Of a stretch of 64,000 nt of DNA, positions 1-18,335 are shown one piece after another. The notes beneath the pieces were generated by a model. The model did no database searches. It was not told the origin of the DNA and worked only from the letters and a program-made list of their open reading frames with translations. The number at the start of each line of letters is the position of its first letter. The first letter of the stretch is position 1. Source of the stretch: Acidobacteriota bacterium (lineage in GTDB: Bacteria > Acidobacteriota > Blastocatellia > Pyrinomonadales > Pyrinomonadaceae); NCBI GenBank assembly GCA_019239425.1, contig JAFAZX010000103.1:85127-149126 (forward strand), in the 5' to 3' direction. The translations under genes were made by a program, and so were the position numbers.

Positions 1-1221
1 GAAGAAGTTGAGCAGCGCCTTGCCGAACGGGTCGGCGCAGGGCCGGAGGTCGCCGTTCGGGGCGAGGTCGTCGTTGTTGTTGTTGTTGCCGGCGACCCCG
101 TTCGCGGTGCAGCCCGCCGGGACGGTCACCCGCTGGCCGGCGGCGACGGCCTCGCTGAAGTCGCCCTGCCGCTCCTTGAGCGTCGGCACGCGGAAGAGGC
201 CCGAGCCCTCGTCCACCTTCTGGTAGTAGCGCTCGTAGCCGACGAAGAAGAAGAGCTTGTCGCGGTTCCGGTTGAACTTCGTCCAGGGCAGGAGGAGCGG
301 GCCGCCGATGTTGCCGCCCGGGTAGTTGTACTTGCTCAGCGGGCGCGAGACGCGGTTGATGCTGTTCGAGCGGTCGTTGGCCTGGAACTTGTAGTGGCGG
401 ATGTAGTCATAGATCGAGCCGTGGAAGGCGCTGCTGCCGCCCTTGGTGGTGGCGCTGATCTGGACGGCGCTCGAACCGTGCTCGGCCGCGTAGTTGCTCG
501 TCTGAATCCTCACCTCCTGCACCATGTCGGGGTTGGCGGTGATGGTCGTGCCGTTGTTCGAGCCGATGTCGATCATGCGCGAGCCGTCGATGGAGACGTT
601 GTTCTGCTCGCCGCGCAGGCCGTTGACGTGGTAGGCGCTATTCTGGTTGGCGCCGCCGCCGAACGAGATGCTCTCCAGGTCGGTGTTGTCCGGGGCGACG
701 ACGCCCGGCAGGACGCGCAGCAGCTCCAGCGAGCTGCGGCTGATGATCGAGAGGTTCTCGATCTGGTTGGCCGTGATGGTGTTCTCGCGCGAGCCGGTCT
801 CGGTCTGGAGCTGGTTCTGCTCGGCGGTGACGGTGACCACCTCGTTCGCCTGCCCGACCTCCAGGCTGATGTCGAGGCCGCGGATGCTGCTGGTCTCGAT
901 GGCGAGGCCAGTCTGCGTGGTGGTCTTGAAGCCGCCGGCCTCGACCCTCACCGTGTAGGTGCCGGGCGTCACGGCCGAGAAGACGTAGCCGCCCTCGTCG
1001 TTGGTCGTGGCCTTGCGCTCCTCCTTGGTGCCCTCGTTGACGAGCGCCACGGAGGCGTTCGGCACCACGGCGCCCGCCGGGTCCTTGACCGTGCCGCGCA
1101 GCGTCGCGCTGCCCGTCGTCTGGCCGAGCGCGGCCTGCGCGCCCGCCAGGAGCGACGCGCAGAGCACGAGGCCCAAGAGGAGTGAGCTAGGACGAAGCCT
1201 GCGCCTTGGGTTGAGATTCAT
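1..1221 (-). CDS. TonB-dependent receptor, Oar-like, with N-terminal carboxypeptidase-regulatory-like domain (truncated by window edge)
   Basis: Absent from the ORF track because it runs off the left edge. Reverse complement from ATG at 1221 reads MNLNPRRRLRPSSLLLGLVLCASLLAGAQAALGQTTGSATLRGTVKDPAGAVVPNASVALVNEGTKEERKATTNDEGGYVFSAVTPGTYTVRVEAGGFKTTTQTG... then GLRGEQNNVSIDGSRMIDIGSNNGTT (plug-like), open through position 1. Confidence 0.9.
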   Translation of the reverse strand, partial: MNLNPRRRLRPSSLLLGLVLCASLLAGAQAALGQTTGSATLRGTVKDPAGAVVPNASVALVNEGTKEERKATTNDEGGYVFSAVTPGTYTVRVEAGGFKTTTQTGLAIETSSIRGLDISLEVGQANEVVTVTAEQNQLQTETGSRENTITANQIENLSIISRSSLELLRVLPGVVAPDNTDLESISFGGGANQNSAYHVNGLRGEQNNVSIDGSRMIDIGSNNGTTITANPDMVQEVRIQTSNYAAEHGSSAVQISATTKGGSSAFHGSIYDYIRHYKFQANDRSNSINRVSRPLSKYNYPGGNIGGPLLLPWTKFNRNRDKLFFFVGYERYYQKVDEGSGLFRVPTLKERQGDFSEAVAAGQRVTVPAGCTANGVAGNNNNNDDLAPNGDLRPCADPFGKALLNFF

Positions 1222-1474: not shown

Positions 1475-1503
1475 AAGTTTTCTTTGTACGACCGGAAAAG
1501 ATG
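1475..1503. promoter_or_regulatory. Diverged second copy of the operator-like motif (AAGTTTTCTTTGTACGACCGGAAAAGATG)
   Basis: Shares the TTGTACGACCGG core with 18178-18204; lies just downstream of the 1509-1535 copy. Confidence 0.35.
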
Positions 1504-1536: not shown

Positions 1537-1565
1537 TTAGTATTACAGCTCAGATTCTTTGTCAA
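1537..1565 (-). promoter_or_regulatory. Sigma70-type promoter for the TonB receptor (TTGACA-17-TACTAA)
   Basis: Minus strand TTGACA (1565-1560), 17-bp spacer, TACTAA (1542-1537), upstream of the receptor start. Confidence 0.6.
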
Positions 1566-1858: not shown

Positions 1859-2950
1859 CTACTTCGCGCCCTGCCCCGCGGCGGCGTTCTGATAGATGGC
1901 CTCACGCTTCTGGTAGCCGTCCTTGACGACCGTGTCGTCGATGTTCGCCTTGTCCACGACGAGCGGCTCCAGAAGGATCGAGGGCACGTCGACCTTGCCG
2001 TTGTTGATGCGGGCGGGCGCGTCGACCTGCTCGCCGCGCGCTAAGGCCACGGCCGCCTCGGCCGCCTTGCGCGCGAGCAGGTGGACGGGCTTGTAGACGG
2101 TCATCGACTGCGTGCCGGCGACGATGCGCTGCAGCCCCGCGAGGTCTGCGTCCTGCCCAGACACTAAAACCTTCCCCGCCACGCCCGCCGTTTCCAGAGC
2201 GGAGACCGCGCCGCCCGCGGTCGCGTCGTTCGAGGCGACGACGGCCTGCACGTCTCTGTTCGACTTCGTCAGGGCGTCCTCGCAGATGCGCAGCGCCTCG
2301 CTCGCCAGCCAGTCCTTCGCCCACTGGTCGGAGACGACCTTGATGTCGCCGCGGTCGATGGCGGGCTGGAGGACGTTCATCTGCCCCTTGCGGAAGAGGA
2401 GCGCGTTGTTGTCGGTGGGCGCGCCGCCGATGAGGACGTAGTTCCCTTTCGGCGCACGGTCTAAAAGGTACTTCGCCTGCAGCTCGCCGACCTTCTCGTT
2501 GTCGAAGGAGACGTAGAGCGCGGGTTCGCTGCTGCGTATGAGCCGGTCGTAGGAGAGGACTGGGACGCCCTTGGCCTTGGCCGAAGCGACGATGGTGGCG
2601 GCGACCTCGCCGTTGTGCGGAATGACGACGAGCACGTCCACGCCCTGCGTCAGGAGGTTCTCGGACTGCTGCACCTGCGCCTTGTCGTCGCCGTTAGCCG
2701 ACTGGACGAGCACCTCCGCGCCGAGTTCCTTGGCGCGGGCAACAAAAAGGTCTCGGTCGCGCTGCCAGCGCTCCTCCTTGAGCGTGTCCATCGAGAGGCC
2801 GATGCGAACCGGGCCGGTCTTCTTTCCGCCGCCGGGCGCGCCGCCGGCCTGCTGCGCCGGCTGGACGCAGGCGAGCTGCGCGGAGGAGAAGACGAGCGCG
2901 AAGAGCGCGACGGCCCCGAAGAGGCTGCGAGAAAGTTTGTGTGTGTTCAT
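1859..2950 (-). CDS. xylF: D-xylose ABC transporter substrate-binding protein
   Basis: MNTHKLSRSLFGAVALFALVFSSAQLACVQPAQ lipoprotein-like signal, then GPVRIGLSMDTLKEERWQRDRDLFVARAKELGAEVLVQSANGDD...QSENLLTQGVDVLVVIPHNG, typical of XylF. SD AAGGAAG precedes ATG at 2950. Confidence 0.88.
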   Translation of the reverse strand: MNTHKLSRSLFGAVALFALVFSSAQLACVQPAQQAGGAPGGGKKTGPVRIGLSMDTLKEERWQRDRDLFVARAKELGAEVLVQSANGDDKAQVQQSENLLTQGVDVLVVIPHNGEVAATIVASAKAKGVPVLSYDRLIRSSEPALYVSFDNEKVGELQAKYLLDRAPKGNYVLIGGAPTDNNALLFRKGQMNVLQPAIDRGDIKVVSDQWAKDWLASEALRICEDALTKSNRDVQAVVASNDATAGGAVSALETAGVAGKVLVSGQDADLAGLQRIVAGTQSMTVYKPVHLLARKAAEAAVALARGEQVDAPARINNGKVDVPSILLEPLVVDKANIDDTVVKDGYQKREAIYQNAAAGQGAK

Positions 2951-3100: not shown

Positions 3101-5689
3101 TTGAAGACGAGAAGACTGACCCTTGCGGCCCTGCCCCTGCTCCTGGTGCTGTTGGCGCCTCCCGTTTGGGCACAGTTGCCGAAGACGAGCGTCACGCTCG
3201 ACTCCGGCTGGACGTTCCGGCAGGCCGGGAAGGACGACTGGCACAAGGCCAAAGTCCCCGGCTCCGTTCAGACGGACTTACTCGCCAACAAGCTCATCGA
3301 AGACCCCTTCTACCGCGACAACGAGCCGAAGCTGCAGTGGATCGGCAAGACCGACTGGGAGTACCGGACGACCTTCGACGTGCCGGCCGCAATGCTCGCG
3401 CGGCGCAACGTCGAGCTGGTCTTCGAGGGGCTGGACACGTACGCCACCGTCTACCTCAACGAACGGCAGGTGCTTGAAGCCGACAACATGTTCCGCACGT
3501 GGCGCGTGGACGCGAAGCTGAATCTGAAGGCCGGGGCCAACACGCTCCGCGTCGTCTTCCGCTCGCCGATTAACGAGGTGCTGCCGCGGATGAAGGCCCT
3601 CGGGTACGAACTCCCCGCGTCGAACGACCAGGGCGAGAAGACCTCGCCGCACACGCGCAAGGCACCTTATCAATACGGCTGGGACTGGGGGCCGCGCTTC
3701 GTCACCTGCGGCGTGTGGAAGCCCGTCCGGCTCGAAGCGTGGGACGACGCGCGCATCGACAGCCTGCGCGTTGTGCAGAATCAACTCGGCAGGGACAAGG
3801 CGCAGTTGACCGCCGAGGTTGAAATTATGTCGTCGGAGGCTTCGGCTGCTCGGCTCATCGTCACGGACACGGCTCGCACACTCAGCTTCTATGCGGAGGA
3901 GTTGGTCAAACTCAACCCGGGCATGAACAAGGTCTCCGTTGACTTCACCATCCGTCAACCTAAGCTCTGGTGGCCGAACGGGATGGGCGCGCAGCCGCTT
4001 TACGGCGTCGACGCAGACTTGCGAGTCTTCAAACGCGGACGAGGCATTAATACTTATGGCCTGACCGACCAGGCACAAACGCGCGTCGGACTGCGCACCG
4101 TGGAGTTACGACAGCAAAAGGATGCTGACGGCAAGAGTTTCACATTCGTCGTCAACGGCGTGCCCGTCTTCGCCAAAGGCGCGAACTGGATTCCGGCCGA
4201 CAGTTTTCCGGAGCGCGTGACGCGAGACAGGTACAGACATCTCTTAGAATCTGCGCGCGACGCGAACATGAACATGCTGCGCGTGTGGGGCGGCGGCTAC
4301 TACGAGTCGGACGAGTTCTACAATTTATGCGACGAGCTGGGGCTGATGGTCTGGCAGGACTTCATGTTCGCGTGCAGCATGTACCCGGGCGACGAGAAGT
4401 TTCTTGAGAGCGTGCGGGCCGAGGCGACCGACAACGTCCGGCGGCTCCGCAACCACCCGTCCGTCGTCATCTGGGTCGGCAACAACGAGGTCGAGACCGC
4501 GTGGCAGCACTGGGGCTGGAAGCAGAACCTCCCGGCGAAGCTCTGGGACGACTACAAGAAAATCTTCCACGGCGTCCTGCCCGAAGTCATCGCCGCCGAA
4601 GACCCTTCGCGCCCCTACTGGCCCAGCTCGCCGAGTTCCAACTTAGAGGAGGACTCCGACTCGCAAAGGATGGGCGACGTGCACTACTGGGAGGTCTGGC
4701 ACGCCTCGAAGCCGTTCGACTATTACGAGCGGCAGCACCCGCGCTTCATGAGCGAGTACGGCTTCCAGTCCTTCCCCGCAATCGAGACGGTCAACGCCTA
4801 CACCTTGCCTTCGGATCACAACATACAGTCGCCCGTCATGCTCGCGCACCAGAAGCACCCGCGCGGCAACCAGCTCATACGCGAGTACATGCTGCGCGAC
4901 TTCCCCGAGCCGAAGGACTTCGAGTCGTTCCTCTACGCGAGCCAGGTCTTGCAAGCCGAGGGCATCAAGGTCGGGGCGGAGCACCTGCGCCGCATCATGC
5001 CGCACAACATGGGTTCGCTCTTCTGGCAGTTGGACGACTGCTGGCCGGTCGCTTCGTGGTCGAGCGTGGACTACTTCGGCCGCTGGAAGGCGCTGCAATA
5101 CTACGCGCGCCGCTTCTACAACCCCGTGCTGTTAAGCCCGCACGTCGAGGGCGACCGGGTCAGGCTCTACGTCGTCTCCGACCGCACGGAGCCGCTCCGC
5201 GCGCAACTGCACGTCCGCCTGCAAGACTTCGACGGCCGCGTCGTCTCCGACATCACCAACCCCGTCGAGGTCTCGCCGCTGACGAGCAAGGCGTATCAGG
5301 CCCTGCCACTCTCGGCGATGCTCGAAGGCCAAGACCCGACACGCCTCTTCCTGTACTGCGAGCTGCTCGCGGGCGGAAAGGTGGTTTCGTCAAACACGCT
5401 CTTCTTCCGCCCCTTCAAAGACCTCACGCTCGCCGCGCCGAACGTCACCACGCAGGTCACGCGCGCGCGCGCCGAGACCTTCGTCACGCTCTCGACCGAC
5501 CGCCTCGCGCGCGCCGTCTACCTCTCCGCGCCCGGCCTCGAAGGCTCCTTCGCAGACAACTTCTTCGACCTCCTCCCCGGCCAGAAGGTCACCGTCGCCT
5601 TCCGAGGCAAAGGCACCGTCACCCCCGTCGAGCTGCGCCGACGCCTCCGCGTCCGCACCCTCTCCGACGCCTTCGATTGGAAGAAATGA
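3101..5689 (+). CDS. Glycoside hydrolase family 2, beta-mannosidase-like
   Basis: Signal peptide LKTRRLTLAALPLLLVLLAPPVWAQ from TTG at 3101 (alternative GTG at 3086). GH2 motifs: TDWEYRTTFDVPAAML, YQYGWDWGPRFVTCGVWKPVRLE, LRVWGGGYYESDEFYNLCDELGLMVWQDFMFACSMYP, FMSEYGFQSFP. Confidence 0.9.
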   Translation: MKTRRLTLAALPLLLVLLAPPVWAQLPKTSVTLDSGWTFRQAGKDDWHKAKVPGSVQTDLLANKLIEDPFYRDNEPKLQWIGKTDWEYRTTFDVPAAMLARRNVELVFEGLDTYATVYLNERQVLEADNMFRTWRVDAKLNLKAGANTLRVVFRSPINEVLPRMKALGYELPASNDQGEKTSPHTRKAPYQYGWDWGPRFVTCGVWKPVRLEAWDDARIDSLRVVQNQLGRDKAQLTAEVEIMSSEASAARLIVTDTARTLSFYAEELVKLNPGMNKVSVDFTIRQPKLWWPNGMGAQPLYGVDADLRVFKRGRGINTYGLTDQAQTRVGLRTVELRQQKDADGKSFTFVVNGVPVFAKGANWIPADSFPERVTRDRYRHLLESARDANMNMLRVWGGGYYESDEFYNLCDELGLMVWQDFMFACSMYPGDEKFLESVRAEATDNVRRLRNHPSVVIWVGNNEVETAWQHWGWKQNLPAKLWDDYKKIFHGVLPEVIAAEDPSRPYWPSSPSSNLEEDSDSQRMGDVHYWEVWHASKPFDYYERQHPRFMSEYGFQSFPAIETVNAYTLPSDHNIQSPVMLAHQKHPRGNQLIREYMLRDFPEPKDFESFLYASQVLQAEGIKVGAEHLRRIMPHNMGSLFWQLDDCWPVASWSSVDYFGRWKALQYYARRFYNPVLLSPHVEGDRVRLYVVSDRTEPLRAQLHVRLQDFDGRVVSDITNPVEVSPLTSKAYQALPLSAMLEGQDPTRLFLYCELLAGGKVVSSNTLFFRPFKDLTLAAPNVTTQVTRARAETFVTLSTDRLARAVYLSAPGLEGSFADNFFDLLPGQKVTVAFRGKGTVTPVELRRRLRVRTLSDAFDWKK

Positions 5690-9837: not shown

Positions 9838-11760
9838 CTAGAACGTCAGCCCGAACCCGTACGGGAAGAGCGGGTCGTAGTCGCGGTCGCCGACGTTGAT
9901 GGGAAGCTGCGCCGTCGAGCGCGGCCAGGTGAAGGAGAGTTTCCCGGTCGGCCGGTAGTCGCCGAAGAGCACGTCCGCGACGCCCTGCCCCTCCGTCCCC
10001 GGCAGCCACGCCGCGACGAACGCGTCGGCCTTCGCCAGGGCGTCATTGATAATCAGAGGCCGCCCCGAGAACAGAACCACGACGACGGGGATGCCCGCCT
10101 CCTTCATCCTCTCAATCGCCGCCGAGTCCTCCGCGCCGAGCGCGAGGTCTTCGCGGTCGCCCACGCCCTCCGCGTAAGGCGTCTCGCCGACCACGACCAC
10201 GCCGACGTCCGCGCCCCCCGCGCCCGAGCCGTCCTTCGAGAACGTCACCTTCGTCCGGCGCGAGACGGTGTTCCGCACGGCCTGCAGGATGGTCGTCCCG
10301 CCGGTCGTCACGTCGCCGCTCTTGCCCTGCCAGTCAATCGTCCACCCGCCGCACTGGTTCCCGATGTCGTCGGCCGACCTGCCCGCGACGTGTATGCGCG
10401 CCGCCGTCTTGCGCAGAGGCAAAGTCCGCCGCTCGTTCTTCAGAAGCACCAACGACTGTCGCACGCACTCGCGCGCGACCGCCCGGTGCTCTGCCGAGCC
10501 GAAGGTGCGGTGCAGGCGGCGGTCGGCGAGGACGTTGCGGCCGCGCTCGGTCAAACCCATCGCCACCTTGACGCGCAGGATGCGCATCACGGCGTCGTCG
10601 ACGCGCGACTGCGGGACGCGCCCCTCGCGGACGAGCTGGACGAGGAGGCTGTGGAACTCGCGGTACTTCGTCGGCACCATCACCATGTCCATGCCGGCGT
10701 TGATGGAAATCTCAATCGCCTGCTTGTAGTCCTTCGTGATCTGGTCGATGGCGTTGTAGTCGGAGATGAGGAAGCCTTCGAACTTGAGTTCCCCCTTGAG
10801 CACGTCGGTCAGAAGGTACTTCTGCGCCGACATCTTCGTCCCGTTCCAACTGCTGTACGAGGGCATGATCGTGCCGACGCCCGCGCGCACCGTCGAGACG
10901 TAGCCCTGCATGTGTATGCGGCGCAGCTCGGCCTCGCTCAGGCGCGTGTCGCCCTGGTCGAGCAGGCGCTTCCCTCCCCCGTTGTTCTGGTCGATCCCGC
11001 CCGTACCCATCGACGTCCCTCCGTCGCCGACGTAGTGCTTGGCGCAGGCGAGGATGCTCAGGGGGTCGCCCAGGTCGTCCCCCTGAAAGCCGCGCACGGC
11101 CGCCTCACCCAAGTCGCGCGCGAGGTCGGGCGACTCGCCGAAGCCCTCGTAGGTGCGCCCCCAGCGCTCGTCGCGTGGAACTGTGACGCAGGGCGCGAAC
11201 GTCCACTGGATGCCGGTGGCGCGCACCTCCTCGGCCGTGACGCGCGCCGCCTGTTCGATCAGCCTCGCGTTGCGCGTGCACCCCAGCCCGACGTTGTGCG
11301 GGAAGACGGTCGCGCCGAGGACGTTGCTGTGGCCGTGCACGGCGTCGATGCCGTAGAGGATCGGAATGGCGAGGCGCGACTTGAGCGCCTCCGTCTGCAC
11401 GCGGTCGTAGAGGTCTGTCCAAGCCTGCAGGCTGTTGCCGGCCTTCGGGTCGGAGCTGCCGCCCGAGAGCAGAGAGCCGAGGGCAAGAGTCCGTATGTCC
11501 GCCGGCTCTTTCATGGCGGCGTCCTGCTCGGCCTGCGTCATCTGCCCGACCTTCTCTTCGAGCGTCATCTGATTCAGCAGCTCGCGCGCTCGCGCGTCGT
11601 AGGAGGTGAGCGGGCGCGGCCCCGCCCCGCGCCGCGCGCCGCCGCCCCTACGCTGCCCGCGCCGCTGCGCGGCCTCGACCCACTCGGGCACGACCAGCGC
11701 CGCCGCCCCGGCGACCGTTGCCGACTTGATGAAGTCGCGGCGGTCGAACTTTTTAGACAT
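9838..11760 (-). CDS. Glycoside hydrolase family 3 beta-glucosidase with Tat-type signal
   Basis: [30 protein letters not shown] (RRDFIK); [55 protein letters not shown]-terminus. Confidence 0.92.
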
Positions 11761-11799: not shown

Positions 11800-13413
11800 T
11801 CAGACCTCGAACTGCAAGCGCGTGACCGACGCCGCGGGGAAGCGGAAGACGACCGTGGCGCCGCGCGGGGCGGCGATGGTCTCGTCCCTCGGCTCGACGC
11901 CGCGCGGGTTCTCGAAGGTGTTCTGCGCGTGGATGTCTGTGGCCGTCAGCACGCGCGCGCGGGCCGAGCGAATCGAAGACGCGCCGCGCACAGTGACCTC
12001 CGTCTCGCGCGCCTCCGACGCGTGCGGGTTGACGACCGTCAGCGTCACGGTTCGGCCTTCGAGCGAGGCCGAGCCGTTCAAAGCCCAGAAGCTCGCCGTC
12101 TGCCCCGCGCGCGGGTGCGTGAACTGCGGCGCGACGAAGACCGTGCGCAACCCTTGTGCGCCCTGGTGCGGCGCGTACATCTCGAAGACGTGGAAGTTGG
12201 GCGTGGCGACGAACTTCTCTTCCGTCGCGAGGAAGAGCGAGTGTAGACAGTTGACGAGCTGCGCGACGTTCGCCATCGCGACCTTGTCGGGGTGGCGGTT
12301 GAAGGTGTCGAGCGTTATCCCTGCGACGAGCGCGTCGCGCAAGGTCTGCGCCTGGCTGAGAATGTAGCGCTTGCCCAACTCCGTGCCGGGCCTGTACCAA
12401 GCGCCCCACTCGTCCACGACGAGCTTGACGCGGTGCTCGCGGTCGTACTCGCCCATCACGGCCCAGTTCGACTTAATCAAGCCTTCCATCTTGTCGGCCT
12501 CGCGAAACATCTCGTACCACTCTTCGAGGTCGAAGCGGAGCGCGTCGCCCTTGCCCTTGTCCCAGTCGGTGGTCGCGCCGCGGCTCACGTTCCAGGAATA
12601 GTGATGCAGGCCCCAGCCGTAGAAGTCGAAGTGGCGCCGCTCGGCCATCTTCGAGAAGAAGCCGCGCGTCCACGCGAGGTCGTCGCTGCCGGGGCCGGCG
12701 GCGATGAAGAGCGGTTGCAGACCCCAGCCCGGCACCGACGCCGTGAAGCGCCGGAACTCCATCGCGTACTCGTCGGGCGTGAAGTTGCCGCCGCAGCCCC
12801 ACGACTCGTTGCCGACGCCCCAGAAGCGCACGCCGAAGGGGTCGCGGCTCGCGGCCTCGCCCGTCGCGCGCAGGTCGGCCAGCGTCGTCGCCCCCGCGGG
12901 CGCGTTGCAGTAATCGACCCACTCGTAGAAGGTCTGCGCCGGCAGGCCGCGCAGGTTCGCGGCCATGTAAGGCTTCGCGCCCGTCGCCCGGCAGAAGCTC
13001 ATGAACTCGTTCGTGCCGAAGCTGTTCGGCTCCGCGCCGCCCCAGAAGTTCGGCCGCCGCGGGCGGCGCGCGCGCGGCCCGACTCCGTCGCGCCAGTCGT
13101 AGCTGTCGGCGAAGCAGCCGCCGGGGTAGCGTATGACGGAAGGCTTGACGCGCTTCAGATACTCGATCATCGCGCGGCGGACGCCGCCGACGTTCGGCAC
13201 CTTCGAATCCTCGCCGACCCAGATGCCGTCGTAGACGACGCCGCCCAGGTGCTCGACGAAGTGCCCGTAGATGTCGGGCGAGATGGTGCCGAGCTTCTCG
13301 TCCAGAAGAATCTCGACCTTCGCGCCCGGCCCCTGCCCACCGCGCGCCGCGAGCAGCGCGAGACTCCCCGCCAAAGCGCCGCCGACGAACTCTCTCCGAC
13401 CGACCTTAGACAT
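11800..13413 (-). CDS. Alpha-L-arabinofuranosidase (GH51)
   Basis: GTISPDIYGHFVEHLGGVVYDGIWVGEDSKVPNVGGVRRAMIEYLKRVKPSVIRYPGGCFADSYDWRDGVGP; WGVGNESWGCGG; DEWGAWYRPGTELG. ATG at 13413 overlaps the upstream GH42 TAA (TAATG). Confidence 0.92.
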   Translation of the reverse strand: MSKVGRREFVGGALAGSLALLAARGGQGPGAKVEILLDEKLGTISPDIYGHFVEHLGGVVYDGIWVGEDSKVPNVGGVRRAMIEYLKRVKPSVIRYPGGCFADSYDWRDGVGPRARRPRRPNFWGGAEPNSFGTNEFMSFCRATGAKPYMAANLRGLPAQTFYEWVDYCNAPAGATTLADLRATGEAASRDPFGVRFWGVGNESWGCGGNFTPDEYAMEFRRFTASVPGWGLQPLFIAAGPGSDDLAWTRGFFSKMAERRHFDFYGWGLHHYSWNVSRGATTDWDKGKGDALRFDLEEWYEMFREADKMEGLIKSNWAVMGEYDREHRVKLVVDEWGAWYRPGTELGKRYILSQAQTLRDALVAGITLDTFNRHPDKVAMANVAQLVNCLHSLFLATEEKFVATPNFHVFEMYAPHQGAQGLRTVFVAPQFTHPRAGQTASFWALNGSASLEGRTVTLTVVNPHASEARETEVTVRGASSIRSARARVLTATDIHAQNTFENPRGVEPRDETIAAPRGATVVFRFPAASVTRLQFEV

Positions 13414-15506
13414 TAACGCTGCCTCCACACGAGCACGTCGGCCGGCTTGAGCTGCCGCGCGCCGTAAAGAATCTCCGCGCCCGGCGGCACCGCGATCTCC
13501 ACCGGCTTCGAGTTGTAGTTGACCGCGACCCAGAAGCCGTCGCGCCAGTCAACGTAGACGCCCGCGGGGTAGTCTGCGACGGCCAGCCCCGCGCGCCTGT
13601 AGACTTCGCGCATCAGTTCCTTCTCAAGCCGCCCGTCCTTCGTGTGGACGCCGATGTACGTGACGCTCCCCTTGCCCAGGCGTCTGTATGTCGCCGCCGC
13701 CGCGCCCGCGTAGAACTGGTTCGCGTACGTCGCCAAAGTCTCCGTCCCCTCGTAAGGCTTGAGCACGTCGCCCCACGCGTTCCAGCCGTAGGTCGCGCCC
13801 TTCGAAGAGACCTCGCCGTTGCCGTTCTCCAACAGGAGGTCGAAGAAGGAGACCTCCGCGCCGATGAGCGGGCGGATGGGCGCGGCCCAAGGGCCTTCCC
13901 AGAGCCAGCCGTTGCGGCGCTTCTGCCCCGTGCGCGCGGTCAGGACGAGGTGGCCGCCCGCTTCGACGTAGCGCGTCCACTTGCGCACGAGTTCCTCGTC
14001 AAGAAGTTGATAGGCCGGCGCGACGAGGACTTTGTACTGATTGAAGTCCGCGGCCTCGTCGATCACTTCGAGCGGCGCGCCGGCCGACTTGATCGCTTCG
14101 AGATAGCGGAACGCGTGCCCCCACGTGTCCCAAAGGGCCGTCTGCCTCTGGTAGTCGATGTTCCAGAGGTTCTCGTGGTTCCAGAGTATCGCCGTCCGCC
14201 GCGCGAGGTAGTCGGCCGGGGGCTTCGCTGCGGGGTCGAACTTCGCGCGCAGCTCCCTCATCTCGCGCGCGACCTGCGAATACTGTAGGCCGCCGGGCGA
14301 AGGCGTAACGCCGTCCGTGTTGACGATGCCGTAGTGGTACAGCTCGCTCCCGTAGAGCGGCTGCCGGTAGCGGTAGTTGCACGCGAACGACAGCCCGCCC
14401 GCGAAGGCGTGCCAGAGCCACATCCGTATCACGCCCGGAGCGGGCTGCGGGTTGATGCGCGCCCAGTTGACCTGACCCGGCTGCAACTCCATCACGCCGG
14501 TCACGCCCTTGATCGGTTTATAAAAAGCGTTCGCCCAGGCGATGCCGTGCTGCCATCCCAGGCGGAAGCCGTCTTCGCCCACGCCACCGCCGCCGCCGAC
14601 CGGGTACATCGTGTAAGAGATGAAGTCCAGCTCGTTCGAGCGGCGCGGGTCTGAGCTGCCGATGGTCGAGATGTAGTTGGTCGTGATGAACTGCGCGGGC
14701 GAGGTGTTGCGCCGAAGTATTGACGCCTGCCAGTTGAGGAACTTCGCCGTCTGGTCGGCGGTGAAGCGCCGGAAGTCGAGCAGCGCGTGCGGGCTGACGC
14801 CGTAGAGGAACGATGGGTTCGGCGGCCTGACCTGTCCGAAGTCGTTGTACTTCAGACTCCAGAAGGCCGTGCCCCACTCCTGGTTGAGCGCCTCGACGGT
14901 CTTGTACTTCGCGAGCAGCCACTCGCGGAAGGCCACTTGCGCCGAGGGGCCGTAGTCGGGCGGCGAGTTCGGCTCGTTGTCGAGCTGCCAGCCCCAGACC
15001 GCGGGGTTCTTGCCGTAACGCCTGCCGAGTTCGTTAACCACGCGCTCGGTCAGGCGAAGGTAGTCCGCGTCCGCGAGCGCGTTGTTGCCGCGCGAGCCGT
15101 GCTCTCTACGTCTTCCGTCCTCGCCGACGAGAAAGCTGTTCGGGTACTTCTCGGCGAGCCAGGCGGGCGGCGTCGGCGTCGGCGTGCAGAGGATGACTTT
15201 GAGGTTGTGCTTCGCGGCGAGCGCGACCGCGCGGTCGAGCCAGGCGAAGTCGAACTTCCCCTCCTCCGGCTCCATGAAGGCCCACGCGAACTCGCCCATG
15301 TGGACGAACTCGAACCCGAGCTTCTCCATGTTGCCGAAGTCCCTGTCCCACTGCGACTCCGGCCAGTGCTCGGGGTAGTAGTAGACGCCGATCCTCATCA
15401 AGTCCTTCGTCGGAAAGAAGCGCGCCGCGGGCGACTGCGGCCGCACGGGGACGTACGAAGAGAGGATGATGAGAAGGACGCAGGACGGGCGTAGGAGCTT
15501 TTTCAT
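13413..15506 (-). CDS. Beta-galactosidase, GH42
   Basis: MKKLLRPSCVLLIILSSYVPVRPQ signal; RIGVYYYPEHWPESQWDRDFGNMEKLGFEFVHMGEFAWAFMEPEEGKFDFAWLDRAVALAAKHNLKVILCTPTPTPPAWL; VWGWQLDNEPN. Confidence 0.92.
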   Translation of the reverse strand: MKKLLRPSCVLLIILSSYVPVRPQSPAARFFPTKDLMRIGVYYYPEHWPESQWDRDFGNMEKLGFEFVHMGEFAWAFMEPEEGKFDFAWLDRAVALAAKHNLKVILCTPTPTPPAWLAEKYPNSFLVGEDGRRREHGSRGNNALADADYLRLTERVVNELGRRYGKNPAVWGWQLDNEPNSPPDYGPSAQVAFREWLLAKYKTVEALNQEWGTAFWSLKYNDFGQVRPPNPSFLYGVSPHALLDFRRFTADQTAKFLNWQASILRRNTSPAQFITTNYISTIGSSDPRRSNELDFISYTMYPVGGGGGVGEDGFRLGWQHGIAWANAFYKPIKGVTGVMELQPGQVNWARINPQPAPGVIRMWLWHAFAGGLSFACNYRYRQPLYGSELYHYGIVNTDGVTPSPGGLQYSQVAREMRELRAKFDPAAKPPADYLARRTAILWNHENLWNIDYQRQTALWDTWGHAFRYLEAIKSAGAPLEVIDEAADFNQYKVLVAPAYQLLDEELVRKWTRYVEAGGHLVLTARTGQKRRNGWLWEGPWAAPIRPLIGAEVSFFDLLLENGNGEVSSKGATYGWNAWGDVLKPYEGTETLATYANQFYAGAAAATYRRLGKGSVTYIGVHTKDGRLEKELMREVYRRAGLAVADYPAGVYVDWRDGFWVAVNYNSKPVEIAVPPGAEILYGARQLKPADVLVWRQR

Positions 15507-15538
15507 AAGAGGTACATGCGCGCGGAGAGAAAGAGTTT

Positions 15539-15623
15539 TCACCACAGAGACACAGAGGCACAGCTTGAAGAGGACTAAAGATGATGCTGTGTCTTAGCTG
15601 TGTCTCTGTGTCTCTGTGGTTCA
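15539..15623. repeat. ACCACAGAGACACAGA family, copy 3 (GH31/GH42 boundary)
   Basis: tcaccacagagacacagaggcacagctt ... agctgtgtctctgtgtctctgtggtt. Confidence 0.9.
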
Positions 15624-15639: not shown

Positions 15640-18030
15640 CTATCTCGACGGGAAGCGCGTCACCTGCCACCTGACCTGGCCGCGCAGAGGGTCGGTTTGC
15701 AGCGTGTAGCCCGAGGCCGCGCCCGTCAGGTTGAGCGTCTGGACGTTGCCCGCGGGGAGCGCGAAGCGGCCGGCGGCCGGGGCGTTGTCGGTGCTGAAGA
15801 CGCGCAGCTCGACGTTCTTCCAGTCGATGTCGTCCGTGCTCTGCGCGACCTTCACGTGCGGGATGACGGCGTTGTTCCTCACGAGCAGCACGACCGGAAT
15901 CTGCCCCGCCTCGATCCGGTGCCAGCGCTCGCCCGCGTACGGCTTGCCCGTCTGGTAGTCGATCCATGTGCCCGGCGGCAGGTAGACACGCCTCGCGTCG
16001 GCGCTCTCCATCAAGGGCGCGACCAGGAGGTCTGAGCCGAACATGTACTCGTCGTCGACCGTCCAGGAGGTCGGGTCGCCCGGGTACTCGAAGAAGAGCG
16101 CGCGCAGCATCGGCCAGCCCTTCGCCGAAGAGTCCTTCGCCTGCGCCAGGATGTACGGCATCAGCGAATACTTCAGCCCGAGCGCGCGGCGGAAGTCTTC
16201 CGTCAAAGCCTCGTCGTACTCCCACGGCTCGCGCGGCGGCGCGCCGTGCGCGCGCGTGTGCGAGGTCAGCACGCCCCACGCCAGCCAGCGGCGGTAGAGG
16301 TCGCGCGGCGCCTTGTTGACGAAGCCGCCCACGTCGTGGCTCCAGTAGGTGAAGCCCGACAGCCCGAACGAGAGTCCGCCGCGCAGCTCGGCCGCCATCG
16401 CCGAGTCCGTGTTCTCGGCGTCGCCGCCCCAGTGCAAAGGATAACGTTGACTCCCCGCCCACGCGCTCCGCGCCCAGATGATGTTCTCGCCCGTCGTCTC
16501 GCGCGTGATGTCCGCGACGGCCTTGTTGTAGCGCAGGGGATAGAGGTTGTGCTCGTACCAGCCCGAGCGGCCCGAGGCGTAGAGGCCGCTGACGGGCGCG
16601 CCCTCGCCGAAGTCGACCTTGATGGCGCCGACGCCGAGTTTTAAGAGCGCCGCGATCTTCGACTGATACCACTTGACGGCCGCCGGGTTCGACATGTCGA
16701 GCACCGCGTCCTCGAAGGGCAGGTTGCCCGCGAGGTCTTTCACCTCGTAGCCGTGCTCGACGATTTCGGGGTAAAGCTCGTTCTTCGGCGTGAAGTAGGT
16801 GTACTGCCAGAGGCTCACGCGGAAGCCCTGCTTCTTCAAGTCCGCGATCATCTTCGCCGGGTCTCTGAAACGTGACTTCGAGAACTGGTAGTTGCTGCGC
16901 CAGTCGGTCTCGAACCAGCCGGTGTCGAGGTGGATGACGTCCGCGGGCACCTTGTACTGCCGGAGCTTCGCCGCCACGTCGCGCACCTCGTCCTCGCTCT
17001 TGTAGGTGATGCGGCTCATCCAGAAGCCGAACGACCAGAGCGGCGGGACGGGGCTGCGGCCCGTCAGGGCCGTGTACTCCGAAAGGACGTCCTTCGGCTC
17101 GCCGAGGAAGACGAAGATGTCGATATTCTCGTCGCCGGTGTAGATGGCGTTGTGGCTGTCGTAGGTCTTGCCGAAGTCGAAGGTGACGGGCGCGGAGGTG
17201 TGGACGAACATGCCGTAGCCGTTGCTGGAGAGGAAGAACGGGATCGGCTTGTACATGAACTCGTTCTGCACGCCCATGCCGTCGCGCGTCCAGGCGTTGA
17301 CCTTCTGCCCGCGCTTGTCGAAGCGCGTGAACGACTCGCCGCAGCCGAAGATTTTTTCGTCGTGCTGGAGTTCGAAGGTCGCGGCCGTCAGGCGCGAGAG
17401 GTCGGAGGCGCGGCGCACGAACGAGAAGGGTATCGGCGTGAAGTAGGTCGCGGGGTCGCCCGCGTTCTGCGTGCGCGTGAGCAGGCGGCCCGCCGCGTCG
17501 TAGAACTCGACGTGCCACGGGTTCTTAATCAACTTCACGCGCCCGTAGGCGCTCGTCCAGGTCACGGCGTCCGCCGTCTGTTCGACGCGCCAGGACTTAT
17601 CCGTCGGCACCGGGCCGGCGAGCATGACGGAGTCCGCGTCGCGCGGCATCTCCCCGCGGGTCGAGAAGCGGAGGCGGACGGTGCGCGGGCTGACGAAGGT
17701 GATCGAGAAGGGCAGGACGGGGTCCTGGTCGTACTCGGTGCCGGGGAACTCGGTGCCGCGCCCCTTGCCCAGGGTCACGTCGACCTTGTTGAAGGAGAGC
17801 GTGGTCGCGCGCAGATACCTGTCCCACTGGAGCGTGCCGCGCCCGCTGCCCGCGTCGAAGCTCGCGACCTTGGAGCCGACGAAGTAGACCTGCTCCATCC
17901 TCTGGAACTCCTGCGACACGTCCACGGGGTCGTTGAGCACCTGCGCCGCCGCCGGGCCGCACGCCAGCAGGACGAGCAGGGCCGCCTTCAGGATGTGCGC
18001 GCCGCGGCGCGCGCGTTCGGGTGTGAGCAA
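15640..18030 (-). CDS. Alpha-xylosidase, GH31 (YicI-like)
   Basis: IFGCGESFTRFDKRGQKVNAWTRDGMGVQNEFMYKPIPFFLSSNGYG; VPADVIHLDTGWF; GVGAIKVDFGEGAPVSG; WARSAWAGSQRYPLHWGGDAENT. TTG at 18030 has SD GGAGG upstream; the longer track ORF (to 18153) is a GC-rich extension. Confidence 0.9.
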   Translation of the reverse strand: MLTPERARRGAHILKAALLVLLACGPAAAQVLNDPVDVSQEFQRMEQVYFVGSKVASFDAGSGRGTLQWDRYLRATTLSFNKVDVTLGKGRGTEFPGTEYDQDPVLPFSITFVSPRTVRLRFSTRGEMPRDADSVMLAGPVPTDKSWRVEQTADAVTWTSAYGRVKLIKNPWHVEFYDAAGRLLTRTQNAGDPATYFTPIPFSFVRRASDLSRLTAATFELQHDEKIFGCGESFTRFDKRGQKVNAWTRDGMGVQNEFMYKPIPFFLSSNGYGMFVHTSAPVTFDFGKTYDSHNAIYTGDENIDIFVFLGEPKDVLSEYTALTGRSPVPPLWSFGFWMSRITYKSEDEVRDVAAKLRQYKVPADVIHLDTGWFETDWRSNYQFSKSRFRDPAKMIADLKKQGFRVSLWQYTYFTPKNELYPEIVEHGYEVKDLAGNLPFEDAVLDMSNPAAVKWYQSKIAALLKLGVGAIKVDFGEGAPVSGLYASGRSGWYEHNLYPLRYNKAVADITRETTGENIIWARSAWAGSQRYPLHWGGDAENTDSAMAAELRGGLSFGLSGFTYWSHDVGGFVNKAPRDLYRRWLAWGVLTSHTRAHGAPPREPWEYDEALTEDFRRALGLKYSLMPYILAQAKDSSAKGWPMLRALFFEYPGDPTSWTVDDEYMFGSDLLVAPLMESADARRVYLPPGTWIDYQTGKPYAGERWHRIEAGQIPVVLLVRNNAVIPHVKVAQSTDDIDWKNVELRVFSTDNAPAAGRFALPAGNVQTLNLTGAASGYTLQTDPLRGQVRWQVTRFPSR

Positions 18031-18177
18031 GTTGAGTCTCCCTCCTCGCCTCTTCGCCAGAGTTTTCGATGGCGGTCGCCGGGCCGGAACGTCGCGCGCG
18101 GCCGCGCCGATGGACGGACGCGCGGCCGCGCCGTCTTGCGCGGCGCTCGACAACCCGACCTCCGTGTTGATAATTTC

Positions 18178-18204
18178 GGTTTTGTTGTAAGACCGGACAA
18201 AAGG
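18178..18204. promoter_or_regulatory. Operator-like motif GGTTTTGTTGTAAGACCGGACAAAAGG
   Basis: Abuts the -10 hexamer; near match to 1509-1535 in the same promoter geometry. Confidence 0.55.
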
Positions 18205-18233
18205 TTTCTATTACTCGGCCCGCCCCTTGTCAA
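18205..18233 (-). promoter_or_regulatory. Sigma70-type promoter for the GH31 operon (TTGACA-17-TAGAAA)
   Basis: Minus strand TTGACA (18233-18228), 17-bp spacer, TAGAAA (18210-18205). Confidence 0.6.
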
Positions 18234-18243
18234 GATAATTTTC

Positions 18244-18335
18244 GGCAGAAGCCCGACCGTCAGGGAGGGCGTCTCGACTCTCGCGTTGCGCTACGACGGA
18301 GGACGTACGCCCTCCCTTACGGTCGGGCTTCCGCC
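18244..18335. repeat. Palindromic repeat, GAAGCCCGACCGTnAGGGAGG family, copy 1
   Basis: ggcagaagcccgaccgtcagggagggcgt ... acgccctcccttacggtcgggcttccgcc. Confidence 0.9.

What the first reader, a model, noticed from the sequence alone, without database searches (positions are those of the whole stretch)
18178..18233. Operator-like motif abutting a TTGACA-17-TAGAAA promoter of the GH31-GH42-GH51-GH3 operon
Seen in sequence: minus-strand TTGACA-17-TAGAAA, followed directly over the expected transcription start by GGTTTTGTTGTAAGACCGGACAAAAGG (plus orientation). The element has TTTTGT/ACAAAA half-sites around a GACC-containing core, and almost the same element sits in the same geometry at the TonB receptor promoter 17 kb away (1509-1535). 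Inference: a local repressor (GntR- or LacI-type) controls receptor and enzymes as one regulon, although no regulator gene lies in this window.
Basis: partly seen in the sequence, partly recalled or inferred. Interest (0 to 1): 0.75.

Follow-up and report, generated by a model that had tools for sequence, protein, structure and literature searches.

The report
ROK-family operator of polysaccharide-degradation genes
The short DNA motif is a real, conserved docking site for what is most likely a sugar-sensing repressor of the ROK family, which in this uncultivated acidobacterium probably switches a receptor gene and several plant-polysaccharide-digesting genes on and off together; it is a new example of a known type of control.

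Summary
The 24-bp element at 18180-18203 directly follows a TTGACA-17-TAGAAA promoter, and a near copy sits in the same geometry at 1511-1534. At 3 mismatches or fewer these are the only two matches in the 7.45-Mb genome. The genome is an Acidobacteriota (nearest named relative: a group 4 MAG).

The motif is conserved across the family: ACTTTGTTGYANGACCKRACAAAAGT, often just downstream of TTGACA, mostly before TonB-type receptor genes. It co-localises with one clade of ROK-family regulator genes: 16 of 99 hits lie within 2.5 kb of a ROK HTH gene, 0.13 expected. So the regulator is most likely ROK, not GntR or LacI.

The cognate gene lies outside the window, on the same contig, 20 kb and 36 kb from the two sites. 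Its own promoter carries a weaker copy. A matrix trained only on other genomes also finds weaker sites at GH2/xylF (window 3054) and at an esterase gene.

Best reading: a local, autoregulated ROK repressor occludes transcription starts until a plant-glycan sugar releases it. Binding, effector and repression are inferred. The GH31 site is not conserved at the GH31 orthologue itself; the TonB, GH2 and esterase sites are.

The parts
18179..18204 (-). Operator A (TTTTGTTGTAAGACCGGACAAAAG core) over the start of the GH31-GH42-GH51-GH3 operon
   Evidence: 36.2 bits with a matrix from other genomes
18228..18233 (-). -35 element TTGACA of the GH31 operon promoter
   Evidence: exact TTGACA lies 19-26 bp before the operator at 22 of 49 sites against 0.12% expected
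18205..18210 (-). -10 element TAGAAA, 17-bp spacer
   Evidence: the SASA promoter of the same genome has the same TTGACA-17-TAGAAA
1510..1535 (-). Operator B (GTTTGTTGCACGACCTAACAAAAG) at the TonB-type receptor promoter
   Evidence: 40.7 bits; present at receptor orthologues in L137, L122, L126, L121
1560..1565 (-). -35 element TTGACA of the receptor promoter
1537..1542 (-). -10 element TACTAA of the receptor promoter
1478..1503 (-). Possible weak second site 32 bp from B (TTTTCTTTGTACGACCGGAAAAGATG); tentative
   Evidence: only -0.2 bits
3054..3079 (+). Weaker operator in the divergent xylF/GH2 intergenic region, 22 bp before GH2
   Evidence: 20.3 bits; the GH2 orthologue in G001 has a 32.3-bit site 23 bp before its start
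1..1221 (-). TonB-type outer-membrane receptor gene (runs off the window to about -2492); an orthologue carries CarboxypepD_reg, Plug and OMP beta-barrel domains
   Evidence: Pfam of the L122 orthologue
1859..2950 (-). xylF, D-xylose-binding protein
3101..5689 (+). GH2 beta-mannosidase-like enzyme
15640..18030 (-). GH31 enzyme (start codon uncertain, 18030 or near 18151), first gene of the operon
13413..15545 (-). GH42 beta-galactosidase
11800..13428 (-). GH51 alpha-L-arabinofuranosidase
9838..11760 (-). GH3 enzyme, last gene of the operon

Best explanation
The element is the operator of a ROK-family transcriptional repressor. Its gene lies on the same contig outside the window (C47:65932-67113, window coordinates -19194 to -18013, minus strand). 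The protein is expected to bind the 26-bp imperfect inverted repeat ACTTTGTT-N9-AACAAAAGT through its N-terminal winged helix-turn-helix. Because the site starts 1-2 bp after the -10 box and covers the transcription start, bound repressor should block RNA polymerase. A sugar from plant polysaccharide would bind the ROK sensor domain and release it, turning on the receptor, GH31-GH42-GH51-GH3, GH2/xylF, an SASA esterase and the repressor gene together. Shown: the sequences, their conservation, the promoter geometry and the linkage to ROK genes. Inferred: binding, repression, the effector.
For: Whole-genome rarity. Conservation of 28 sites without gaps, consensus ACTTTGTTGCAnGACCTnACAAAAG. 16 of 99 pattern hits in the family lie within 2.5 kb of a ROK HTH gene, expected 0.13, P about 5e-29. 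ROK genes of the GGRPP-wing group: 12 of 22 have a site of 20 bits or more within 2.5 kb, against 1 of 43 other ROK genes, leave-one-genome-out; several of the remainder have sites 9-40 kb away on the same contig. 22 of the 23 GGRPP-wing proteins form one supported clade containing the window genome's C47 ROK, next to G053 and G001 regulators whose ROK-receptor intergenic regions hold strong sites. A degenerate site sits 50 bp before the C47 ROK gene. Exact TTGACA 19-26 bp before the operator at 22 of 49 sites against 0.12% expected. The protein matches PF00480 at 1e-55, and solved ROK repressors Lmo0178 and Mlc over the DNA-binding part as well. The measured binding site of the Streptomyces ROK regulator RokB, AGTTTGTTCAACACACGTGCGAACAAAG, has the same half-sites (PMC4856308).
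Against: The core GYANGACCKR is conserved but not palindromic, which a simple symmetric dimer does not explain. In the own genome the ROK gene is 20-36 kb from the two strong sites, and its own promoter site is weak (16.9-20.2 bits). Ten of 22 clade members have no strong site within 2.5 kb; for some of these only a few kb of sequence were held. Two related loci (L134, L138) have a variant motif with a LysR gene near the receptor. No binding or expression data exist. The GH31 site is not conserved at the GH31 orthologue in G001. The sites were collected with the window's own pattern, so invariance of the pattern columns is partly by selection.
Confidence: 0.82

Rival explanations
1. The site is bound by another ROK paralogue of the same genome (C10, C88, C1 or C5), not by the C47 protein.
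For: The genome has at least five ROK proteins with related DNA-binding domains; the C10 domain is 75-76% identical to that of C47.
Against: C10 and C88 belong to other wing groups (GGRRP, GGRCP) that, with one exception (G037:C476), lack a strong site within 2.5 kb in the genomes examined. All five sites of the own genome lie on contig C47 with the C47 ROK gene.
Confidence: 0.1
2. A GntR- or LacI-type repressor binds it.
For: The core TTGYAMGACC looks a little like a FadR-type GntR site (TNGTNNNACNA, from memory), and such regulators often control sugar genes.
Against: No GntR or LacI gene was recognised next to the motif in the related loci inspected, while ROK genes recur. The site lacks the central CG palindrome of LacI operators.
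Confidence: 0.04
3. A ROK or other protein binds but acts as an activator, or as a dual regulator, rather than a repressor.
For: Some ROK proteins activate some targets (general knowledge). At GH2 the site has the opposite orientation to the gene and lies 22 bp before the start codon.
Against: At the strong sites the operator begins directly after the -10 box and covers the start, a place where bound protein blocks polymerase.
Confidence: 0.08
4. The element is a conserved RNA feature of the 5' leader, not a DNA operator.
For: It lies at or just after the expected start, so it would be transcribed; receptor leaders are long, often 200-370 nt.
Against: The site occurs in reverse orientation upstream of GH2 and, in variants, at ROK promoters. 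The match is to DNA sites of ROK regulators.
Confidence: 0.03

Closest known systems
RokB operator, Streptomyces coelicolor (PMC4856308)
   Same: ROK-family regulator; measured 28-bp site AGTTTGTTCAACACACGTGCGAACAAAG with TTTGTT and AACAAAG half-sites; overlaps the start codon of the target gene.
   Different: Different phylum; targets linked to amino-acid metabolism and a heterologous antibiotic cluster; longer spacer with no GACC core; no TonB receptor.
XylR (ROK) of Firmicutes, e.g. Clostridium acetobutylicum consensus ACTTattAAAnnnnnTTTaaAAAgt (PMC2873477)
   Same: ROK repressor of pentose and plant-fibre genes; 25-bp inverted repeat with the same ACTT...AAGT ends; binding shown by gel shift.
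   Different: Inner sequence differs; regulates xylose catabolism genes and transporters rather than outer-membrane receptors; effector here unknown.
Thermotoga ROK regulons XylR, BglR, ManR (PMC3750489)
   Same: Local ROK regulators that co-regulate glycan transporters and glycoside hydrolases.
   Different: ABC transporters instead of TonB-type receptors; very distant organisms.
Lmo0178 of Listeria monocytogenes (PDB 5f7p, 5f7q, 5f7r)
   Same: Closest solved relative of the C47 ROK protein, matched from the DNA-binding domain to the C-terminus.
   Different: Sequence distant; the Listeria locus is for alpha-glucans (from memory); operator not compared.

Membership tests
ROK-family transcriptional regulator (C47 protein) | C-terminal ROK domain (PF00480) | tested here: met
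   E 1e-55, residues 90-384
ROK-family transcriptional regulator (C47 protein) | N-terminal DNA-binding helix-turn-helix, absent from ROK kinases | tested here: met
   Residues from 12-14 onward align with the DNA-binding parts of Lmo0178 and Mlc; no separate Pfam HTH hit
ROK-family transcriptional regulator (C47 protein) | Zinc-binding motif CxCGxxGCxE of ROK proteins | tested here: inconclusive
   The sequence reads TCAAGNRECWE: two of the three cysteines kept
ROK-type operator | Inverted repeat of about 22-28 bp, T-rich left half, A-rich right half | tested here: met
   ACTTTGTT...AACAAAAGT in 28 aligned sites; compared with published sites
ROK-type operator | Binding by the ROK protein | not testable with these tools
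   Needs gel shift or footprint
ROK-type operator | Genomic linkage with the regulator gene, and autoregulation | tested here: met
   weak site before the own ROK gene
XylR (xylose-responsive ROK) regulon | Control of xylose isomerase and xylulokinase genes; response to xylose | not tested
   xylF has a weak site, but xylA/xylB promoters were not searched and the effector is unknown
GntR (FadR type) regulon | GntR gene linked to the motif | tested here: inconclusive
   None recognised next to sites in the related loci inspected, but neighbouring genes were read by sequence start and not all Pfam-scanned
LacI regulon | Short palindrome with a central CG pair and a linked LacI gene | tested here: not met
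   Core is YANGACC, not a central CG palindrome; no LacI gene recognised adjacent to the sites inspected

The most novel reading that the evidence does not exclude
One ROK clade directly controls TonB-type receptors and glycoside hydrolases across this acidobacterial family. In eight related genomes the same operator is embedded in protein-coding DNA: 46 nt after the ATG of a GH3 gene, inside the signal-peptide codons (typically FC(L/T)PLQQS). DNA agreement exceeds what synonymous codons would give. The signal-peptide sequence would then serve two purposes, and the repressor would act there as a roadblock inside the gene.
Probability: 0.55. Interest if true: 0.6.

Novelty: new member of a known kind. 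Interest (0 to 1): 0.47.

Why it matters
Acidobacteriota are abundant soil bacteria, mostly uncultivated, with many polysaccharide genes and little known regulation. This gives a concrete operator, regulator and target set that can be tested in a heterologous host. It would let the motif predict which receptor goes with which enzymes in metagenome-assembled genomes of this family. The embedded copies in GH3 signal peptides would be an unusual case of a regulatory site constraining a secretion signal.

Tried and rejected
The gene at 1859-2950 first looked like a possible regulator (periplasmic-binding-protein fold); it is XylF, a transport protein. A GntR reading of the TTGYAMGACC core was dropped once ROK linkage appeared. 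A xyloglucan assignment from the GH31-GH42-GH51-GH3 set is plausible but unproven: the GH31 active-site stretch reads HLDTGWF as in 5f7c (annotated alpha-glucosidase), not HFDCFWM as in the YicI structure. Searches of the literature library for ROK regulation in Acidobacteria found nothing direct. A paper on NagC and Mlc operator recognition was not held. One Pfam batch failed on a wrong reference and was not repeated.

Full report
Observation. The described elements are present as stated. On the minus strand TTGACA (18233-18228) and TAGAAA (18210-18205) are 17 bp apart, and the 24-bp element starts one base after the -10 box. At 1510-1535 nearly the same element follows TTGACA-17-TACTAA. The pattern common to both, with up to three mismatches, occurs only twice in 7.45 Mb. 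A matrix trained only on other genomes ranks both far above everything else in 84 kb of this contig (40.7 and 36.2 bits; simulated maximum 12.2). It also reveals two weaker sites at 20.3 and 20.2 bits: one in the xylF/GH2 intergenic region, the other directly before a ROK-family regulator gene. A fifth site (17.4 bits, with a matrix using a different base background) precedes an SASA-type esterase gene at C47:63546, with the same TTGACA-17-TAGAAA promoter.

Organism. Contig G001:C40 of the same genus is the record QHXN01000042.1, an Acidobacteria group 4 MAG. Its GH42 is 80% and its GH31 86% identical to the window's.

Conservation. Scanning 100 relatives with the pattern gave zero- to one-mismatch hits in several genera of the same family, and clusters of hits on single contigs. 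Fetched regions show the sites mostly between genes, before TonB-type receptor genes and beside ROK genes. The gapless alignment of 28 sites gives ACTTTGTTGCAnGACCTnACAAAAG, with bases outside the search pattern (C2, A24, G25) also conserved; part of the set was filtered with a longer pattern that includes these columns, so this is only partly independent. The receptor orthologues at 75%, 68%, 50% and 47% identity all carry the site; so do the GH2 (73%) and SASA (76%) orthologues in G001. Other GH2 homologues in this set (L124, L117, L144, L230, L147) lack it, and the G001 GH31 orthologue has no site directly before it.

Promoter geometry. An exact TTGACA lies 19-26 bp before the operator at 22 of 49 sites (0.12% expected), including most receptor promoters. 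The element therefore sits over the -10 box or the start of transcription, where a bound protein would block polymerase.

The regulator. Sixteen of 99 pattern hits in the family fall within 2.5 kb of one of 74 ROK-type HTH genes, where 0.13 would be expected, and 29 fall within 40 kb where 2.0 would be expected (hits, ROK genes). Dividing ROK genes by the wing sequence, 12 of 22 with the GES(T/S)GGRPP-type wing have a strong site within 2.5 kb against 1 of 43 others, using matrices that leave out the tested genome. Because the first loci were chosen for holding the motif, the exact size of this contrast is biased upward for the first group, which uses whole-genome searches on both sides, is not affected in that way. 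Twenty-two of the 23 GGRP proteins form one clade (support 99/92), in which the own C47 protein groups with G053:C431 and G001:C111, both having strong sites in the adjacent ROK-receptor intergenic region. The C47 protein (394 aa) has a ROK domain and aligns with solved ROK repressors. Other ROK groups of the family carry more symmetric relatives of the site at their own promoters, for example GCTTTGTTTTTAGTTCAAACAAAGCT and AGTTTGTTGTAAATACAAACAAACTT, which supports TTTGTT/AACAAA as ROK half-sites.

Comparison with the known. The measured RokB site AGTTTGTTCAACACACGTGCGAACAAAG (PMC4856308) and the C. acetobutylicum XylR consensus ACTTattAAAnnnnnTTTaaAAAgt (PMC2873477) share half-sites or ends with the motif. 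ROK regulators of plant-glycan genes are well known (PMC3750489). What appears new is the phylum, the TonB-receptor targets and the conserved asymmetric GACC core. It works like a ROK regulon; family membership of the protein is well supported, and that of the operator rests on linkage and resemblance, not binding.

Open points. The effector is unknown. XylF, GH10, GH51, GH31 and GH9 point to plant cell-wall glycans, but the GH31 specificity is uncertain. Why the core is asymmetric is unexplained. The possible second site at 1478-1503 is weak, although tandem sites occur at receptor promoters in L126, L134 and L137.

Embedded sites. In eight genomes the operator lies inside a GH3 gene 46 nt after the ATG (counting L147 from its ATG rather than the earlier GTG), in signal-peptide codons. 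Observed scores exceed those of most synonymous recodings, with P from 0.04 to below 5e-5 per gene. The genes are related, so these tests are not independent.

Noticed in passing
L117:5623, L129:9643, L147:9056, L227:14568, L228:17426, L229:15949, L279:2595, L130:7927: Operator copies inside GH3 signal-peptide coding sequence, 46 nt after the ATG, peptide typically FC(L/T)PLQQS; DNA match stronger than synonymous expectation.
   Followed up: partly
window 18249-18330: 82-bp palindromic REP/MITE-like element directly upstream of the GH31 promoter; its arm AAGCCCGACCGTNAGGGAGGGC (up to 1 mismatch) occurs 84 times on each strand in the genome, typically in inverted pairs, and fewer times in relatives.
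   Followed up: partly
L134, L138: Receptor genes with a variant site GTTGTTATACCAGACAAAAG and a LysR-type gene near by; possibly a different regulator uses a similar site.
   Followed up: no
window 1859-2950: xylF-like binding protein gene near a TonB-type receptor gene; no ABC permease or ATPase gene was seen beside it.
   Followed up: no
L232:10746 and the same spot before ROK genes in G031, G046, G049: A second conserved site like ACTTAATAGCAGGCCCCGACAAAAGT about 80 bp before these ROK genes, probably an autoregulatory variant.
   Followed up: no
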